This document shows positions 3,867 to 24,043 of a stretch of 64,000 nt of DNA, piece by piece (position 1 is the stretch's first letter; the number at the start of each line of letters is the position of its first letter). The position numbers and the translations under genes were made by a program. This stretch comes from Polycladomyces zharkentensis (GTDB lineage Bacteria; Bacillota; Bacilli; Thermoactinomycetales; JIR-001). The DNA lies in NCBI RefSeq assembly GCF_016938855.1, contig NZ_JAFHAP010000010.1:1-64000 (forward strand), read 5' to 3'. Under the pieces are notes generated by a model. The model did no database searches and was not told the DNA's origin. It saw nothing but the letters and a program-made list of their open reading frames with translations.

Positions 3867-5240
3867 TCAACGCCCCTGTTCCTCGGCCCATTGTTCCATT
3901 CGCTGTTGCAACTGGTCAATCTCTTTGTTCAGATCGACCCGCTTTCCTTGCTGCACCTGGGATAACACTTTGCTCACCCAGGGGACCAGGATCGTTTTTT
4001 GGTACGGCATATCCATCAACCACGGCGTAGTGGTATTGGTTTTGGCATTTTGAACGTAGACGGGCACATAGGGATCGTCTTTTCTTTGGAAATCAAAGGG
4101 CTGAACGCTGGGCGGAACCATTTCATTTTCGTATTTGAACTGCTGAATTTGGGGGCCTGAGAGGAATTTGACCACTTCCCACGCCGCCGCCGGGTTGCGC
4201 GTTTTGGCTGAGATGCACCACGGCGTCGTGCTGATCGGCGAACCCAAGCCATCCGGTCCCTTGAAGTTGACACGCAGGGAAAAGCGTTGCAACAAACGGC
4301 TATCCTTTTTCCCGACATATTGTTTCCACGGTACTTCCATGTTGGGGTTTTCCAGCACGATCGCATGCTGATTCCGGTCGGTAAACAGGTTTTCCTGTCC
4401 CTGGCTCACCAGGAATCCGGGATGAACATAGGGGGTTGCCGCCATCATCCACTGCACGCTTTTGACAAATGCGGGATGGTGAAAGTGGAAATTCAACGTG
4501 TGCGGTCGGGAGACGTCACCGGTGACCACCTCGTTTCTCCCCCCATAATAGCTGATCAAGCTTTCCAACAGTGTGGAGGTGCGCCAGACGCCGTCCCAGT
4601 AGAGGCCGTAGGTTTGTTCACCCGTTCGTGGATTTTTCCCCGTCATACGCTTCGCTTTCGCCAATACTTCTTCGGGTGTGGGACGGGTCGACAGCGGTTC
4701 GACCCCCCAATCGCGGAACAGTTGATTGTCCACCGTGATCAGACGCGAAAACGCCCCGGACGGCAGTCCCAACGTATTTTTCCCCGTACGGTCTTTGATC
4801 AGTGGCAAAACCGACCGCTGATAACGTGAGGAAAGCCGCAGCGTGGTGTCTTGCCGGAGCAGATCATCGATCGGGCGGATCAGTCCCTGCTCATAAAAGG
4901 CGCGAAACTGCGGGAGATAGAACACATCCGCCTGCCCGCTCATCAGCATGGTTTGCTGTTTGGTGTTGTAATCCTGCCACGGTATGTTGATGAATTCCAC
5001 CTGCAAATTTGGATGTTTTTTCAAAAAGGGTTTCATCGCGGTCTTCAGTCCCGGCATTTTGGCTCCCGTCACCGGATCCGTGTAATCGTCGATTTTAAAG
5101 TCGATGGTGTTGACCACCACTTTGCCCTCCAACCGGGCCGGATCTCCGCTTACTTTCCAGTCTTGGGAGCCTGAGCAAGCCGTCATCACCGTCAACAGCA
5201 CCGCAAACCACCCGCCGAGAAACCAACGTTGCCGTCTCAT
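3867..5240 (-). CDS. ABC transporter substrate-binding lipoprotein (carbohydrate type)
   Basis: A 457-residue extracytoplasmic solute-binding protein of the family 1 (MalE/UgpB) type. The N-terminus MRRQRWFLGGWFAVLLTVMTAC ends in a lipobox with Cys22. Family features include VEFINIPWQDYNTKQQTMLMSGQADVFYLP in the first lobe and the late AAWEVVKFLSGP motif. It should bind a sugar or oligosaccharide outside the membrane and deliver it to the permeases at 5253-6089 and 8204-9091. It lies 12 bp downstream of the MalG-like permease gene and is co-directional. No ATPase gene is present nearby; such systems often share a general MsmX-type ATPase. Substrate cannot be read from the sequence. Confidence 0.85.
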   Translation of the reverse strand: MRRQRWFLGGWFAVLLTVMTACSGSQDWKVSGDPARLEGKVVVNTIDFKIDDYTDPVTGAKMPGLKTAMKPFLKKHPNLQVEFINIPWQDYNTKQQTMLMSGQADVFYLPQFRAFYEQGLIRPIDDLLRQDTTLRLSSRYQRSVLPLIKDRTGKNTLGLPSGAFSRLITVDNQLFRDWGVEPLSTRPTPEEVLAKAKRMTGKNPRTGEQTYGLYWDGVWRTSTLLESLISYYGGRNEVVTGDVSRPHTLNFHFHHPAFVKSVQWMMAATPYVHPGFLVSQGQENLFTDRNQHAIVLENPNMEVPWKQYVGKKDSRLLQRFSLRVNFKGPDGLGSPISTTPWCISAKTRNPAAAWEVVKFLSGPQIQQFKYENEMVPPSVQPFDFQRKDDPYVPVYVQNAKTNTTTPWLMDMPYQKTILVPWVSKVLSQVQQGKRVDLNKEIDQLQQRMEQWAEEQGR

Positions 5241-18991: not shown

Positions 18992-19106
18992 CAAAATCAG
19001 AAACATCCGGTTTCAAGTGTGCACGCGCGGGGAATATATTCAAAAGCCCAACGCTTCGGTCTGAACGATGCCGGAGCTTTCCTTTTCATATAAAGGAGGG
19101 GAATCG

Positions 19107-19946
19107 GTGTTTCAGTCAGTCGAAACGATCATCGTAACCTGGATTGCATCTATCCTCCTCATCATCGGCTGGTGTCTTCGTTCCAATCCTTTCTCCGCCC
19201 TGCACGGCTTTGTCATCGATCTCTTTCGACAGAGGCGCCTGTTGATCCTTTTTGCGGGGGCACTCAGTGTATTGCTGCTCAACAAGCTGGAACTCTTGAT
19301 CGAACCGCATATTCAGCAAAAAATCGATTTCACCCCGTACATTTTTGCCTTTGAAGGCCATGTGACGCCCTTGTTTCAACAAACATTGGCATCCCGGCCT
19401 CTCACCTACATCACCACCTATTTTTATGTGATTGTATTTGCGGCTGTGATGGTTGCTTCACTGGCCATCTACCATCGGGAAAAGGACTTCCGTTCGTTGT
19501 ACGCGTTTTTGTATGCCATTTCGCTCAATTATTTTCTCGCGATCCCGTTTTTCCTGTTCATACCGGTGGAAGAGACATGGCACATGCATCCGGCTATACG
19601 ATTCCTGATCCCAGACGTCTATCCGGCCTTTGAGGAACAATACCGTCATTTCTCCGGATTGGACAACTCCTTCCCCAGCCTGCATACGTCCATCTCAGTC
19701 ATGATGGCCATGATCGCGTATCAGTCCAAAAATCGCCGGTTTGCCCGATTGACGATCGTTTCGGCCGCCGTCATTCTGTTTTCCATTTTGTATTTGGGTA
19801 TCCACTGGATCATGGATTTGCTGGCCGGCGTCATTCTGGGCATCGTCAGCGCATCGCTGGCATTCAGATGGAGTGACTATACACTCGCTTATCCGTGGTA
19901 TTTCCCGAACCGAAAAAAACCTGCTTCGGAACAGTCTTATCATTGA
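19107..19946 (+). CDS. PAP2-family phosphatase / inositolphosphotransferase-like membrane enzyme
   Basis: A 279-residue integral membrane protein with about six helices. The C-terminal half carries PAP2 motifs: DNSFPSLHTSISVMMA (central SxxxH) and LYLGIHWIMDLLAG (final H...D). The RxxxxxP first motif is not clear, as in Aur1/inositolphosphotransferase-like members. It likely removes or transfers a phosphate head group of a lipid. GTG start at 19107 follows AAAGGAGGGG. The 3' 236 bp (19701-19936) recur, slightly diverged, at 23758-23992 on the far side of the zinc locus. A strong terminator follows. Confidence 0.8.
   Translation: MFQSVETIIVTWIASILLIIGWCLRSNPFSALHGFVIDLFRQRRLLILFAGALSVLLLNKLELLIEPHIQQKIDFTPYIFAFEGHVTPLFQQTLASRPLTYITTYFYVIVFAAVMVASLAIYHREKDFRSLYAFLYAISLNYFLAIPFFLFIPVEETWHMHPAIRFLIPDVYPAFEEQYRHFSGLDNSFPSLHTSISVMMAMIAYQSKNRRFARLTIVSAAVILFSILYLGIHWIMDLLAGVILGIVSASLAFRWSDYTLAYPWYFPNRKKPASEQSYH
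19701..19936 (+). repeat. Left copy of a 235-bp direct repeat flanking the zinc locus
   Basis: The 3' part of the PAP2 gene. The right copy at 23758-23992 matches it almost throughout; I count roughly a dozen differences including one deleted base. Same orientation, 3.8 kb between copies. Confidence 0.95.
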
Positions 19947-19947
19947 A

Positions 19948-20001
19948 GAAAAAAACAACACCCCCTCGACTTCTTCTTGATCGAGGGGATGTTGTTTTTT
20001 T
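19948..20001. terminator. Bidirectional terminator
   Basis: AAAAAAACAACA and stem CCCCTCGA...TCGAGGGG with mirrored TGTTGTTTTTTT. It can end the PAP2 transcript and the His-rich protein transcript coming from the right. Confidence 0.9.
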
Positions 20002-20016
20002 AAAACGAGCTTCATT

Positions 20017-20367
20017 TTATCCTGATTGAACAGTGATCAATTCCACAGGCCCATGATCATCACAATGATCACCATGAACGTGATGAAGCCGACCATTTAC
20101 CAGATAATCTGTATGATCACCATGAGGAACCATCTCGTGACCACAATCTTTATCATGGTTACAACCACAAGCAACAGGACGACATGTGTCCGGGTTTATA
20201 TCAGATACATCAATTTTGCATTCATCCCAATGATCCCCATGTTGATGATGAAGATGGCCATCATGTACATAATCAACATGGCCTCTATGAAGGATTTTGG
20301 TATGACCACAAGATAAGCTGTGAATGTGTCCATGGTTTCCATGAACCTGATGCTCTAATTCACTCAA
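20017..20367 (-). CDS. Histidine/cysteine-rich protein with two metal-binding repeats
   Basis: A 116-residue soluble protein, no signal peptide. About a quarter of the residues are His, Cys or Asp. Two similar modules are seen: CGHTKILHRGHVDYVHDGHL followed by HHQHGDHWDEC (about 20-50), and CGHEMVPHGDHTDYLVNGRL followed by HHVHGDHCDDHG (about 75-106). Such repeats strongly suggest zinc or similar metal binding in the cytoplasm, either storage or handover; this is inference. TTG start at 20367 follows AAAGGGGG at eight bases. It stands next to a ZnuA-type binding protein and a permease pair, all more AT-rich than the backbone. Confidence 0.75.
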   Translation of the reverse strand: MSELEHQVHGNHGHIHSLSCGHTKILHRGHVDYVHDGHLHHQHGDHWDECKIDVSDINPDTCRPVACGCNHDKDCGHEMVPHGDHTDYLVNGRLHHVHGDHCDDHGPVELITVQSG

Positions 20368-20607
20368 AGAAATTGCCCCCTTTCATTGATTATTCCTTGC
20401 CCATCACCAGTATCCTCTTTTGTCATGGAAACATGCATCAGCGTTGCACATGCATGCGCATAAGTGAACGACTGAACAAAAAATAGAGGTTGTGCTGGCC
20501 GGAATGGCATCCAAAGGCCAATATCTCCCCGGTTTGCAGAGAGTATGTTTCAACTCTGTATCACCGATGAATAGAAGGTTTCCTTCCAAGATAAGGGAGT
20601 ATTGTTT

Positions 20608-21552
20608 TTAGTTTGGCTGAGCTTCCAATGCCTTCTCTAAACTCTCTGCGTTCTTTTTCATCATGGAGAAGTAATCCTCACCTCTATCTCGTTCTTTTTG
20701 GGTCAGTCCCTCCACTGGGTTCAAGGTTAACGATTCCGCGCCGATTTCCTTTTTGACAGCGTTAGCCGCTTTTCCATTGACCAGGGTTTCAAAGAGGATG
20801 TAGTGGATTGCGTGTTTTCGGGCGATATCTGTGATTTTCTCCAACTCCTTCGCAGTAGGCTCGTCTTCCGGTGACAGACCGGAAACCGGGATCTGCTCCC
20901 AACCATATCGTTTGGCTAAATACCCAAAGGCCGCATGAGAAACGATGAATTGATGTTTTGTCGCTCGGTTGGCGATTTCTTGAAAACGATGGTGCAAATC
21001 GTTTAAACCTGCCTCCAATCGTTTATAATTCGCTCGATAAGCTTTTTCGTGTTTGGGGTCGGCTTGGATCAAACCATCACGGATCGCTGCAGCTTGCTGC
21101 TTGGCCAAAACTGGATCCAACCATACATGAGGATCATACACCCCGTGGTCATGTTCCTCTTTATGTGACTCCTCCGACGGGTGCAACTGGATGGATCGAG
21201 TCGAATTTACAATCACTGTTCGTTTCGTATCCAAAAAGGGCTTAACTTTGTCGACCCAACCTTCCAATCCAGCACCGTTGTAAATGAATACGTCAGCTTC
21301 TGACAATCGGCTCATCTGTTTAGGAGAGGGTTCGAAATCATGCGGTTCCACTCCAGCCGGCACCATGTTCGTAACCTCAACATAATGTCCTCCGATCTTT
21401 TCCGCAAAATCCGCCAAAGGATAAAAGCTGGCATATACCTGGATTTTTTCTTTCTGTGAAGATTGGTCCCCCATTGCCGAAGTGGTACATCCGACGAGGA
21501 AGCAAATTCCCACCACAAGAAAGACAAACCATCCGTAGCGCAACAATTTCAT
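20608..21552 (-). CDS. znuA: ZnuA-type zinc ABC transporter substrate-binding lipoprotein
   Basis: A 314-residue cluster A-I binding protein. Lipobox FLVGC with Cys22; then VYASFYPLADFAEKIGG, GVEPHDFEPSPKQ (metal His), NGAGLEGW, a short charged His-containing loop SEESHKEEHDHG and DPHVWLDP, and the second His in VSHAAFGYLAKRYG. These are ZnuA/AdcA features; the His loop favours zinc over manganese. The ATG at 21552 has GGAGG seven bases upstream; an ATG at 21557 is too close. A Zur-like box lies 62-76 bp upstream. No ABC permease or ATPase gene accompanies it here, which is unusual. Confidence 0.88.
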   Translation of the reverse strand: MKLLRYGWFVFLVVGICFLVGCTTSAMGDQSSQKEKIQVYASFYPLADFAEKIGGHYVEVTNMVPAGVEPHDFEPSPKQMSRLSEADVFIYNGAGLEGWVDKVKPFLDTKRTVIVNSTRSIQLHPSEESHKEEHDHGVYDPHVWLDPVLAKQQAAAIRDGLIQADPKHEKAYRANYKRLEAGLNDLHHRFQEIANRATKHQFIVSHAAFGYLAKRYGWEQIPVSGLSPEDEPTAKELEKITDIARKHAIHYILFETLVNGKAANAVKKEIGAESLTLNPVEGLTQKERDRGEDYFSMMKKNAESLEKALEAQPN

Positions 21553-21613
21553 ATCCATTCCTCCATTCAAATACATACGATTAGTCAACCCTACTGGATA
21601 CACAATGATTAAA

Positions 21614-21628
21614 TCGTAATCATTATGA
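21614..21628 (-). promoter_or_regulatory. Zur box upstream of znuA
   Basis: TCGTAATCATTATGA matches the Bacillus Zur operator TCGTAATnATTACGA at all but one defined position. It lies where the znuA promoter must be, so zinc repression by Zur is expected. Confidence 0.75.
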
Positions 21629-21761
21629 TTTATATGAACTTATGATAAACCTATTCAACAGTTGTTGTCTACATAATCCGGAAGCCCTTTATGCATGAAT
21701 TTTACCTATTAGTCGAAATTAGTCGAAGTGACCTTTTGATGTGGAATCCATCTGATGAGTA

Positions 21762-21795
21762 TGTTATACTGGCCAATAAAGCGTAATTATTCGTA
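21762..21795 (+). promoter_or_regulatory. Extended -10 promoter with a degenerate Zur-like box
   Basis: TG-T-TATACT (21762-21770) is a good extended -10 element on the plus strand. Just downstream GCGTAATTATTCGTA (21781-21795) keeps 11 of 14 defined positions of the Zur box, so a Zur-regulated promoter for the permease pair is possible. The following leader to 21976 (about 200 nt) has an open frame without recognisable protein and may be a remnant. Confidence 0.4.
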
Positions 21796-21976
21796 TTTAT
21801 GGAGACAGGATCAATGTTCAAATCGAGCGTATCCGGCGGAAATTGTCCCAGTACTTTCCCGCCTTGCTTCACCTATACTCTGCAAGAAAGCTGGTTATGG
21901 CCTCTCCGACCATTTCAGCGCCCTGAAAATGGGATGTACGATTGCGGGTGAGATCCCAAAGGTGAGGTGAAAGTGA

Positions 21977-22822
21977 ATGAAGAGGAAACGATTTGATTTT
22001 GGAAGATTATTGCAAGCTGTGATTCTATTTGGTTTTTCGATCTATCTGATCAAGCTTTTTGGCACCGGGGAAATCCACAAATTAGTAGCCCCTCATATTG
22101 CAGCTTTATTGAAGCTGACACTCGGTGTCCTCGTTGTGATGACCTTGTATGCTCTGTTGACATTCTTTACGAAGCGGTCATCTTGTGAGTGTGACCATGA
22201 TCATTCCCATCATCATGCGCATGATCATGGCCAATTGAATCCGGTGTCGCTTCTGTTAGTAGTCCCCGTTGTTCTGGGATTGTTAGTGCCTACTCAAGCA
22301 TTAGGAGTCTCAAAGATGAAAAATGGTCTTCAAACGTTACCCAAAGTCGACTTATCAAAGGTTCCCCGAGAAGAGGCGTCGTATGTTACAAAACCTCCAA
22401 AACCCAAAGAAGGATCGGAATTGTCCTTAGCCGATGTGGCGGAAAATATCTTAATAGCACCAGAGTATTATTTTAATCGGAGGTTCAAATTTACTGGATT
22501 TGTTTATCATCCAGATGGTTGGCCGTCAAACCGCATGATCTTGTGCCGATACTTAATTGCCTGCTGTGCGGCTGATGCGAGTCCGATTGGAATTGCAGTA
22601 GAGATGAAGGACGCAGCGAAGTACAAAAACAATTCTTGGGTACATATTGAAGGGACGATATCAACACGGAAGATTCCTCAATTAGACCGCATTGAAGCCA
22701 CCAATTGGTATTACGGTTACCCGGAAAAGCCCGTACTGTTCGTTCATACCATTAAACAAATTAAGGAACCCAAAGATCCTTATATCTATTTCACCGGACT
22801 GAATGTGACAGGGGGCAACTAA
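21977..22822 (+). CDS. TIGR03943 family putative permease partner (YcgQ-like)
   Basis: A 281-residue protein. Two N-terminal helices (LLQAVILFGFSIYLIKLFG and LLKLTLGVLVVMTLYALLTFF) are followed by a metal-binding loop CECDHDHSHHHAHDHG (about 70-85), a third helix and an extracytoplasmic C-terminal domain with FVYHPDGWPSNRMILCRYLIACCAADASPIGI. This is the TIGR03943/DUF1980 architecture, which is always paired with a DUF318-type permease. The His loop and location beside znuA point to zinc; transport has not been shown for the family as far as I know. ATG at 21977 follows GAGGTGA. The permease gene starts 4 bp later. Confidence 0.8.
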   Translation: MKRKRFDFGRLLQAVILFGFSIYLIKLFGTGEIHKLVAPHIAALLKLTLGVLVVMTLYALLTFFTKRSSCECDHDHSHHHAHDHGQLNPVSLLLVVPVVLGLLVPTQALGVSKMKNGLQTLPKVDLSKVPREEASYVTKPPKPKEGSELSLADVAENILIAPEYYFNRRFKFTGFVYHPDGWPSNRMILCRYLIACCAADASPIGIAVEMKDAAKYKNNSWVHIEGTISTRKIPQLDRIEATNWYYGYPEKPVLFVHTIKQIKEPKDPYIYFTGLNVTGGN

Positions 22823-22826
22823 AACA

Positions 22827-23741
22827 ATGTGGCAAGCCGCACAAACAATATTTCTTTCCATTGTCCTTGAGTCGTTGCCTTTCGTTTTATTAGGCGTATT
22901 ACTTTCTTCGTTGATTCAGGAACTCGTGTCACAAGAGAGAATGTTACGGCTGATGCCGAAAAACGGTAAAATGGCTGTTCTCGTCTCCTCTCTTTTCGGA
23001 CTGGTTCTCCCGGTTTGTGATTGCGGAACGATCCCGGTTGCTCGTAGCTTGATAAGAAAGGGAATGCCAACTTCTGTAGCAGTGTCCTTCACACTGTCAG
23101 CGCCTGTAGTTAATCCGATCACAATGATTGCAACTTATGTCGCGTTTGGCATGAATGCTTCCATGATGTGGTTGCGGGTGACCACAACGTTTGTTATTTC
23201 TGTCGTGATTGGCTGGATACTCCTCTCTATTGAAACAAAGGAAAATAAACATTTGGAAACGAGATGTTACGAACATGCTCTAGCAGAAACAGCGACTACG
23301 CGCTCTGTTCAACATAGACGATCTGTCTCGCAAGTCTTTGGTGCAGTTATTGGACATGCGATTATCGAGTTTTTCGAAGTCGGGGGATTTGTGGTTGCCA
23401 GTGCAGCAGTGGCTGCCGTATTGCAAACGTGGATTCCTGCATCCGTATTGTCTCCTGTTGGAAAAGATCCAATTTGGTCCGTTGCAGGGATGATGATTCT
23501 CGCTATTCTGTTATCCCTCTGTTCAGAAGCAGATGCATTTGTTGCACGCTCACTGTCGGGATTGACAACAACTGGAGGGGTATTGGGGTTCTTGGTGATC
23601 GGACAAATGATCGATATGCGAAATATGTTTCTACTCCCAAGCGTTTTTTCACGTCGGATCGTCATCATTGCTTTTTCCCTCGCCATGATCCTGACGCTAT
23701 GTGGAGGGATTCTGATCAACTACATCGGGTTTAAGATCTAG
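22827..23741 (+). CDS. DUF318/ArsP-like permease (YcgR-like)
   Basis: A 304-residue membrane protein with about eight helices. The conserved core of the UPF0718/DUF318 family is visible: LESLPFVLLGVLLSSLIQEL, LVLPVCDCGTIPVARSLIRKGMP with the CDCG motif (about 58-61), and SFTLSAPVVNPITMIATYVAF, repeated in the second half as LCSEADAFVARSL. Family members export organic arsenicals or, in the YcgR branch paired with TIGR03943, are suspected metal transporters. Co-transcribed with the upstream gene. Seventeen bases after its stop begins the truncated PAP2 copy. Confidence 0.82.
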   Translation: MWQAAQTIFLSIVLESLPFVLLGVLLSSLIQELVSQERMLRLMPKNGKMAVLVSSLFGLVLPVCDCGTIPVARSLIRKGMPTSVAVSFTLSAPVVNPITMIATYVAFGMNASMMWLRVTTTFVISVVIGWILLSIETKENKHLETRCYEHALAETATTRSVQHRRSVSQVFGAVIGHAIIEFFEVGGFVVASAAVAAVLQTWIPASVLSPVGKDPIWSVAGMMILAILLSLCSEADAFVARSLSGLTTTGGVLGFLVIGQMIDMRNMFLLPSVFSRRIVIIAFSLAMILTLCGGILINYIGFKI

Positions 23742-23757: not shown

Positions 23758-24001
23758 ATGATGGCCATGATCGCGTATCAGTCCAAAAATCGCCGGTTTG
23801 CCCGATTGACGGTCGTTTCGGCCGCCATCATTCTGTTTTCCATTTTGTATTTGGGAATCCACTGGATCATGAATTGCTGGCCGGCGTCATTCTGGGTATC
23901 GCCAGCGCATCGCTGGCATTCAGATGGAGTGACGATACTCTCGCTTATCCGTGGTATTTCCCGAACCGTAAAAAACCTGCTTCGGAACAGTCCTTGCAGT
24001 G
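23758..24001 (+). pseudogene. Truncated, frameshifted copy of the PAP2 gene 3' end
   Basis: Matches 19701-19946 nearly base for base. It lacks the first two thirds of the gene and has one base deleted (CATGAATTGC against CATGGATTTGC), which breaks the frame at about 23870. No ribosome site. It is the right arm of the direct repeat bracketing the zinc locus. Confidence 0.95.
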
Positions 24002-24008
24002 ATCAATC

Positions 24009-24043
24009 AACCGGTGCCGCATTTCGGCGCCGGTTGTTTTTTG
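24009..24043 (+). terminator. Terminator after the zinc permease / PAP2 fragment
   Basis: Hairpin AACCGGTGCCG-CATTT-CGGCGCCGGTT followed by GTTTTTT. Confidence 0.9.

What the first reader, a model, noticed from the sequence alone, without database searches (positions are those of the whole stretch)
20017..23741. Zinc acquisition island without an ABC motor: His-rich protein + ZnuA + TIGR03943/DUF318 pair
znuA has a near-perfect Zur box, but no znuB/znuC follow. Instead the divergent operon encodes a permease and a partner with a His-rich loop, perhaps also under a weak Zur-like box, and a cytosolic protein with two His/Cys modules. The four genes may form a zinc capture, transport and storage route in which ZnuA hands metal to a non-ABC permease. 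This is a hypothesis; the permease family has no proven zinc role known to me.
Basis: inference. Interest (0 to 1): 0.65.

Follow-up and report, generated by a model that had tools for sequence, protein, structure and literature searches.

The report
Zur-controlled accessory zinc-scavenging gene island
A small, apparently acquired gene island in a bacterium of the class Bacilli looks like a backup kit for collecting and holding zinc when zinc is scarce; its membrane pump and its histidine-rich protein belong to widespread families whose jobs have not been worked out.

Summary
The weak second box also exceeds chance (21 of 20,000 simulations do as well). 'No ABC motor' holds only locally: znuA-znuC-znuB and a Fur-family gene lie on another contig.

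In its order 8 of 17 orphan ZnuA genes sit beside TIGR03943/ArsP_1; outside it, 21 of 50 chosen genomes show the linkage. But 40 of 40 order genomes have ZnuB-family genes, and 12 of 12 whose znuB lacks a local znuA carry one orphan ZnuA elsewhere. ZnuA2 most likely serves ZnuBC in trans.

The permease models as an elevator-type secondary transporter like ArsB, DASS and TRAP proteins. The 116-residue protein belongs to an unnamed His/Cys-rich family. Repeats of a neighbouring gene's end flank the island; one sister genome has an eroded copy, another an empty site.

The parts
20017..20367 (-). 116-residue His/Cys-rich protein (HIS), TTG start; two four-stranded beta modules in the model; no hydrophobic segment
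   Evidence: no match for the window protein in Pfam, NCBIfam or PHROGs, none for the family profile in PDB sequences
20608..21603 (-). ZnuA2, zinc-type substrate-binding lipoprotein; the ORF opens with GTG at 21603, likely true start ATG at 21552 after GGAGG (inferred)
   Evidence: PF01297 293.2 bits; best solved relative YcdH 2o1e, E 1.6e-68
21611..21631 (.). Zur box, 1 mismatch
21642..21671 (-). promoter-like site TAGACA-18-TATCAT for znuA2; the Zur box follows about 10 bases downstream
   Evidence: such sites are not in excess in the region: 5 found, mean 8.2 in shuffles
21778..21798 (.). weak Zur-like box, 4 mismatches
21977..22822 (+). TIGR03943/DUF1980 membrane partner: three hydrophobic segments, His/Cys-rich loop (about residues 62-92), C-terminal domain probably external (topology inferred)
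22827..23741 (+). ArsP_1 (DUF318) permease; C64, C66, H177, E181, C232 and D236 invariant in 32 aligned sequences
   Evidence: model pLDDT 87.7, pTM 0.84; structural neighbours
19068..19946 (+). PAP2 phosphatase gene whose 3' end is the left repeat
19701..19946 (+). left direct repeat (PAP2 3' end)
23758..24002 (+). right direct repeat (second copy of the PAP2 3' end; 95.8% identical over 236 columns)
19949..20001 (.). inverted repeat, terminator-like, between PAP2 and HIS
24008..24036 (+). terminator-like site after the right repeat; a like sequence follows PAP2 in the empty site of G002

Best explanation
This is an acquired, Zur-controlled accessory zinc-scarcity island. When zinc is short, Zur leaves the divergent intergene and both arms are transcribed. 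ZnuA2, a second zinc-type lipoprotein, most likely delivers zinc to the ZnuBC transporter encoded elsewhere, as AdcAII does for AdcCB. TIGR03943 and ArsP_1 form a two-subunit secondary transporter of elevator type that works in parallel, most likely bringing zinc or a zinc complex inward. The 116-residue protein is a cytosolic multi-site zinc buffer. Shown here: gene content, boxes, recurrent linkage, znuBC elsewhere, and presence, erosion and absence of the island in three genomes of the genus. Inferred: Zur control, zinc as substrate, inward direction, ZnuA2-ZnuBC pairing, buffer role, acquisition.
For: Zur boxes: window; 16 sites of up to 4 mismatches in the 23 order loci, 0 and 0 for two control patterns. 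znuA-znuC-znuB and a Fur-family gene in the genome. Of 40 order genomes, 12 have a ZnuB-family gene without a ZnuA within 4.5 kb, and each has exactly one orphan ZnuA; in G005, G006 and G012 that orphan is the one beside TIGR03943/ArsP_1. ZnuA places near TIGR03943: 8 of 17 orphans, 1 of 53 others (p 2e-5). Module ZnuAs are not one clade and lie among zinc-type ZnuAs; G027's is sister to its own ABC-linked copy. Outside the order 21 of 50 genomes have ZnuA within 8 kb of a listed TIGR03943 place, 0.36 expected. HIS lies near COG0523 in 16 of 80 loci, ZnuA in 8, ArsP_1 in 6; 20 of 80 loci hold Zur boxes, 0 for both controls. Papers, passages only: B. anthracis Zur binds upstream of an ArsP_1 gene (PMC6336718); AdcA and AdcAII both deliver to AdcCB (PMC8416893).
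Against: No expression, binding or transport data. The nearest NCBIfam equivalogs of the permease are exporters, though well under cut-off, and the B. anthracis authors read their boxes as positive regulation. In the order 15 of 23 TIGR03943 loci have no ZnuA hit and 9 of 23 have no box of up to 4 mismatches. HIS itself has no Zur box (best 11 mismatches), and in 6 of 80 loci it follows an ArsR-like gene, which usually marks metal excess. The island is eroded in G001 and absent in G002, so it is dispensable in the genus.
Confidence: 0.55

Rival explanations
1. TRAP-like zinc importer: ZnuA2 docks on TIGR03943/ArsP_1 and hands zinc to this secondary transporter, a three-part SBP-dependent system without ATP.
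For: ZnuA, ArsP_1 and DUF1980 co-directional behind Zur boxes in G027 and G270; ZnuA, DUF1980 and ArsP_1 co-directional in G166, where the boxes have 4 mismatches. Five order genomes (G000, G027, G030, G031, G032) have an ABC-linked zinc-type ZnuA and an extra ZnuA beside the pair. The ArsP_1 model matches TRAP membrane subunits at Z 9.3-12.4.
Against: 40 of 40 order genomes have ZnuB-family genes. In G005, G006 and G012 the module ZnuA is the only ZnuA outside the two-permease clade, hence the likely partner of ZnuBC. Module ZnuAs form no clade of their own. 15 of 23 order loci of TIGR03943 have no ZnuA hit. 16 of the 21 linked loci outside the order also hold a ZnuB hit.
Confidence: 0.17
2. 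The pair is a metal exporter (zinc, copper or an arsenical) that is activated by zinc-loaded Zur or guards against overshoot after derepression.
For: The nearest NCBIfam equivalogs are efflux models (SO_0444 Cu/Zn 96.6 bits, SaoE 80 bits). The B. anthracis paper reads its two boxes as positive regulation (PMC6336718, passage). The top structural match is ArsB (Z 14.2).
Against: Scores are far under the cut-offs of 300 and 325. The pair is co-directional with ZnuA behind Zur boxes in G027 and G270. The superfamily holds importers and exporters alike (recalled).
Confidence: 0.18
3. The island is a passenger: a once useful cassette now decaying, with no present role in this strain.
For: Eroded in G001, absent in G002; a complete znuACB is present besides.
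Against: In G000 all four frames are open, both boxes are kept, and conserved metal-ligand positions are kept. HIS is an open frame in G001 at 86% identity.
Confidence: 0.1

Closest known systems
AdcAII/Lmb with Pht/Sht proteins of streptococci (second zinc SBP that uses AdcCB)
   Same: a second zinc SBP away from the ABC genes, near a His-rich protein gene, under a zinc sensor (PMC8416893, PMC7667036 and PMC11580457, passages)
   Different: Pht proteins are surface proteins (passage, PMC8416893); HIS has no hydrophobic segment and no histidine-triad Pfam match; control here is by a Zur box; the TIGR03943/ArsP_1 pair is extra
B. anthracis Zur regulon (PMC6336718, passages): znuA BAS1889 apart from znuCB-zur, ArsP_1 gene BAS1632 beside yciC
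   Same: same families under Zur boxes; Zur binding upstream of the ArsP_1 gene shown there by EMSA
   Different: there znuA and the ArsP_1 gene are far apart by locus number; here they share one intergene and the znuA is an extra copy
ScfA/ScfB of group A Streptococcus = YcgR/YcgQ of B. subtilis (PMC5584981, passages)
   Same: two linked membrane proteins; B. subtilis rings for TIGR03943 in the control search, and YcgQ as its carrier is recalled
   Different: no zinc link for scfAB in the passages seen; function unknown there
TRAP transporters (SBP, small Q and large M subunits; recalled)
   Same: three-part logic; the ArsP_1 model resembles TRAP membrane chains
   Different: the SBP here is ZnuA-type and the small subunit TIGR03943-type by profile
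SO_0444 Cu/Zn efflux and ArsP-type arsenic efflux permeases
   Same: ArsP_1-related profiles match
   Different: scores under the curated cut-offs

Membership tests
ZnuA (PF01297) zinc SBP | profile score over cut-off | tested here: met
   293.2 bits, cut-off 29
ZnuA (PF01297) zinc SBP | metal-binding His positions aligned to a related SBP of known structure | tested here: met
   alignment to YcdH 2o1e keeps VEPHD, DPHVW and HxAFGYLA; which His bind metal is recalled
ZnuA (PF01297) zinc SBP | zinc rather than manganese branch | tested here: met
   outside the two-permease group, branch support 100/100, in the 61-row tree; the zinc/manganese names of the branches are inferred
ZnuA (PF01297) zinc SBP | znuBC in the same operon | tested here: not met
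   none in the island; znuC and znuB on contig C2
TIGR03943 | equivalog score | tested here: met
   149.9 bits, cut-off 88.8
ArsP_1 (PF03773) | profile score and conserved Cys motifs | tested here: met
   198.9 bits, cut-off 32.3; C64, C66, C232 invariant in 32 rows
SO_0444 Cu/Zn efflux equivalog (NF033936) | curated score | tested here: not met
   96.6 of 300 bits
arsenic efflux subfamily (NF037962) | curated score | tested here: not met
   21.8 of 100 bits
Zur regulon | Zur box near the promoter | tested here: met
   the promoter itself is only a consensus match
Zur regulon | zinc-dependent expression | not testable with these tools
   needs RNA or reporter data
TRAP transporter | TRAP-type SBP, Q and M sequence families | tested here: not met
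   the three proteins match ZnuA, DUF1980 and ArsP_1, and no TRAP family is listed
TRAP transporter | membrane subunit of the shared elevator fold | tested here: inconclusive
   Z 9.3-12.4 to TRAP chains, 14.2 to ArsB; the tool warns that helical models reach about 13 by common arrangement
streptococcal histidine triad (Pht) | Pfam match | tested here: not met
   not among the 6 families weakly matched by the 49 HIS members at E up to 10; likeness to its HxxHxH motif is recalled

The most novel reading that the evidence does not exclude
A zinc importer built like a TRAP transporter: a ZnuA-type lipoprotein passes zinc to an elevator permease (ArsP_1) and its small subunit (TIGR03943), and a cytosolic His/Cys protein of an unnamed family takes up the imported zinc. 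It would be the first SBP-dependent secondary transporter for a transition metal known to me (recalled, not searched).
Probability: 0.15. Interest if true: 0.85.

Novelty: new variant of a known kind. Interest (0 to 1): 0.5.

Why it matters
Relatives of the window's TIGR03943 protein occur in 165 of 398 sampled genomes of the class. The pair is needed for full fitness in a mouse infection model in one species (PMC5584981, passages), yet its substrate is unknown there. The linkage found here points to zinc and makes the question directly testable. The HIS family, with relatives in several phyla, has no name in the Pfam and NCBIfam copies searched. If ZnuA really feeds the permease, zinc would have an ATP-free, SBP-dependent way in.

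Tried and rejected
HIS as a known family: nothing for the window protein in Pfam, NCBIfam or PHROGs, nothing for the profile in PDB sequences. Among 49 HIS members, 21 match EutQ (PF06249) weakly, best E 0.0063, and five other families in 1-4 members; I take these as chance. The PDB fold search of the HIS model gave no Foldseek hit at E up to 0.001 and at best Z 2.9, which does not prove a new fold.

Literature, from capped listings of an open-licence library: TIGR03943 or DUF1980 in 1 paper, as a table entry; COG3689 in 1 paper; five HIS peptide motifs in 0 papers. DUF318/ArsP_1/UPF0718 with zinc or Zur: 15 of 5,132 listed, only PMC6336718 with an ArsP_1 count. ScfAB or SMU.747: 15 of 121 listed, mostly antibody papers; ScfAB with zinc: 10 of 937 listed. 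Searches listed 20 of 17,163, 30 of 45 and 15 of 67. Passages seen without the pair or HIS named: PMC2770081, PMC6103462, PMC7667036, PMC11580457, PMC2823685, PMC10957091. PMC6120080 (passages) only reports mobility of YcgQ and YcgR.

TIGR03943 profile against PDB sequences: best E 0.31; ArsP_1: none up to E 1. Plasmids: HIS relatives in 10 records, TIGR03943 relatives in 25, identity under 60% for the latter; I did not look at their neighbourhoods. A fixed four-gene system is rejected.

Rows dropped or chosen; 70 of 71 ZnuA places (one broken fragment out); PF00950 hits with E worse than about 1e-19 were left out, among them two G016 fragments and all hits of about 1e-8 and worse, likely other transporter families. 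ZnuA tree: 61 of 70 places; the nine left out lie by two ZnuB genes; 50 of the 143 genomes outside the order with a match, the first 50 in its ranking, so 21 of 50 leans towards window-like pairs; only listed places were used, and one fragment of a split ZnuA was left out. HIS: 80 of 495 stretches, picked by conserved peptide patterns, so its conservation is overstated; A3 holds 49 of 82 rows. The TIGR03943 alignment holds 16 of the 23 other order loci.
Full report
What is there. The window is part of contig C10 of a 3.32-Mb, 22-contig genome. The four ORFs are as described; three belong to ZnuA, TIGR03943/DUF1980 and ArsP_1, and the 116-residue protein matches no family. The divergent intergene of 373 bases holds a Zur box with one mismatch (21611-21631) and a weaker one with four (21778-21798). 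In 20,000 first-order simulations of this intergene none had a site with two or fewer mismatches and 21 had one with four or fewer. They are the only sites with up to four mismatches in the 64-kb window. The consensus is recalled from B. subtilis. G011 of the same order has a contig of 299,770 bases, the length of NZ_BMHQ01000004.1 of Marinithermofilum abyssi, which NCBI places in Thermoactinomycetaceae, Bacilli, so the window very likely comes from that group.

The genome overturns the title. PF00950 and PF01297 searches find a znuB and a znuA close together on contig C2, with a ZnuC-like ATPase between them and a Fur-family-like gene after them (the two labels are from sequence). A whole-genome scan with the box finds three places: this island, one shortly before znuA on C2 (three mismatches), and one just upstream of a COG0523-like gene on C8; the control pattern finds one place. 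So an ABC motor exists, and the island is one of few likely Zur targets.

Island history. The island lies between the 3' end of a PAP2 gene and a second copy of that end (95.8% identical over 236 columns). G001, of the same genus, has PAP2, HIS as an open frame, a 62-base remnant matching the ArsP_1 gene, and part of the second PAP2 tail. G002 runs from PAP2 straight to the terminator found to the right of the island, and also lacks about 255 bases before the amylase gene. In the ZnuA tree the ABC-linked copies of G001 and G002 group together (100/88) with G000 outside. One gene tree is thin evidence, but the simplest reading is presence before the three split, erosion in G001 and loss in G002, perhaps by recombination between the repeats. 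The window's TIGR03943 protein is 21-29% identical to the 16 order members aligned but 76% to G072 and 53% to G051, from other families of the class. A loop with three or more His/Cys is present in 13 of 14 rows from outside the order and in the window, and in 0 of the 16 order rows. The pair therefore probably came from outside the order. G072 has the same layout: a divergent ZnuA-family gene, two Zur boxes, then DUF1980 and ArsP_1; but its ZnuA is distant from ZnuA2 (E 2e-23).

Co-occurrence. The order has 40 genomes in the set. TIGR03943 is in 23, PF00950 in 40, PF01297 in 40. Of 70 ZnuA places, 31 lie by one ZnuB-family gene, 22 by two, and 17 are orphans; 8 of the 17 orphans, the window's included, and 1 of the 53 others lie within 6 kb of TIGR03943 (Fisher p 2e-5). 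In all 7 orphan cases other than the window a Zur box of up to three mismatches lies in the upstream region of ZnuA (in G012 it falls inside my longest ArsP_1 frame, whose start is uncertain). In G027 ZnuA, ArsP_1 and DUF1980 run in one direction behind one box. The 23 order loci fetched hold 16 sites of up to four mismatches, in 14 loci, and none for either control pattern; 15 of the 23 have no ZnuA hit. Outside the order, 21 of 50 chosen genomes have ZnuA within 8 kb of a listed TIGR03943 place, against 0.36 expected for random placement in 5-Mb genomes. Of these 21, 16 also have a ZnuB hit in the fetched stretch and 5 do not (G072, G118, G166, G175, G270). The 18 stretches hold 37 boxes of up to three mismatches, none for either control. 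So the pair is a frequent member of zinc-acquisition islands in Bacilli.

Whom does ZnuA2 serve? In 12 of 40 genomes a ZnuB-family gene has no ZnuA nearby, and each of the 12 has exactly one orphan ZnuA. In G005, G006 and G012 this orphan is the one beside TIGR03943/ArsP_1, and the only other ZnuA of each falls in the two-permease group of the tree. The module ZnuAs are scattered among ABC-linked zinc-type ZnuAs, needing five changes, at least two forced by well-supported branches (the bootstrap had not settled, and 4 of 500 shuffles were as low). ZnuA2 is closest among solved proteins to YcdH, the B. subtilis ZnuA (recalled). All this favours delivery to ZnuBC. Precedent: pneumococcal AdcA and AdcAII both deliver to AdcCB (PMC8416893, passages).

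The permease. In 32 aligned sequences C64, C66, H177, E181, C232 and D236 are invariant. The model (pLDDT 87.7, pTM 0.84) has two halves of similar helix order, with helix breaks at both Cys motifs. Foldseek gave no hit at E up to 0.001. VIA-align 2 put ArsB first (Z 14.2, 290 residues aligned, rmsd 5.3). By title, 39 of the top 40 rows are ArsB, DASS-type, TRAP, CNT or YdaH/MtrF transporters, the other a MleN-MetQ model; the next row drops to Z 6.0. The tool warns that helical models can reach about 13 by common arrangement. A secondary transporter of the IT superfamily (name recalled) is likely. Its nearest NCBIfam equivalogs are exporters, under cut-off. B. anthracis Zur binds upstream of an ArsP_1 gene, and those authors thought of positive regulation (PMC6336718, passages). 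Export therefore stays open; co-directional arrangement with ZnuA behind Zur boxes argues for import.

HIS. A pattern search found 495 related stretches in GTDB genomes; the best 80 loci carry titles from Bacillota, Chloroflexota, Spirochaetaceae, Planctomycetota, Proteobacteria and others. In 82 sequences 24 of the 30 His and Cys positions of the window protein are kept in at least 94%. The model has two four-stranded beta modules (pLDDT 84.5, pTM 0.76). Neighbours in the fetched flanks: COG0523 in 16 of 80, ZnuA family in 8, Fur family in 8, ArsP_1 in 6, DUF1980 in 5; ribosomal S14 in 6 and FolE2 in 4. Twenty of 80 loci hold 51 Zur boxes of up to three mismatches, none for either control. 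Directly before HIS (300 bases) 5 of 79 loci have one, none for the controls. Of the 6 loci with ArsP_1, 5 have a box within about 120 bases upstream of it. In 6 of 80 an ArsR-like gene lies directly upstream on the same strand (four of the six scanned by Pfam). Being linked to both scarcity and excess regulators, a cytosolic zinc buffer is the best guess. In the window HIS has no box of its own (best 11 mismatches); it may be read with znuA2 across a 240-base gap.

Verdict. I put the zinc assignment of the island at about 0.9 and the detailed best explanation at 0.55. The motor-less claim fails; the co-occurrence prediction succeeds. No published zinc role for TIGR03943 turned up in searches, whose listings are capped and whose library lacks most subscription papers.

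Noticed in passing
window 19701-19946 and 23758-24002; L103, L104: PAP2 3'-end direct repeat around the island, with an eroded island in one genome of the genus and an empty site in another
   Followed up: yes
L030:4464-4826, L048:4464-4823, also L035, L041, L254:9540-9908: A small protein family of about 120 residues without a Pfam match (two members scanned) recurs beside zinc-scarcity genes, twice between a Zur box and HIS
   Followed up: partly
L069, L074, L077, L083, L085, L090: HIS directly downstream of an ArsR-like regulator gene, an arrangement usual for metal-excess sensing
   Followed up: partly
L134-L137, L139-L141: TIGR03943/ArsP_1 pairs beside a long ABC-type ATPase gene (perhaps uvrA, guessed from length, not scanned), five of the seven without any box of up to 4 mismatches; perhaps a second regulatory class
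   Followed up: no
L246 (G088): A relative of the window's TIGR03943 gene broken by stops, beside an ArsP_1 frame
   Followed up: no
L076:3572-3985 and 4464-4796: Two HIS copies close together in Lentilactobacillus raoultii
   Followed up: no
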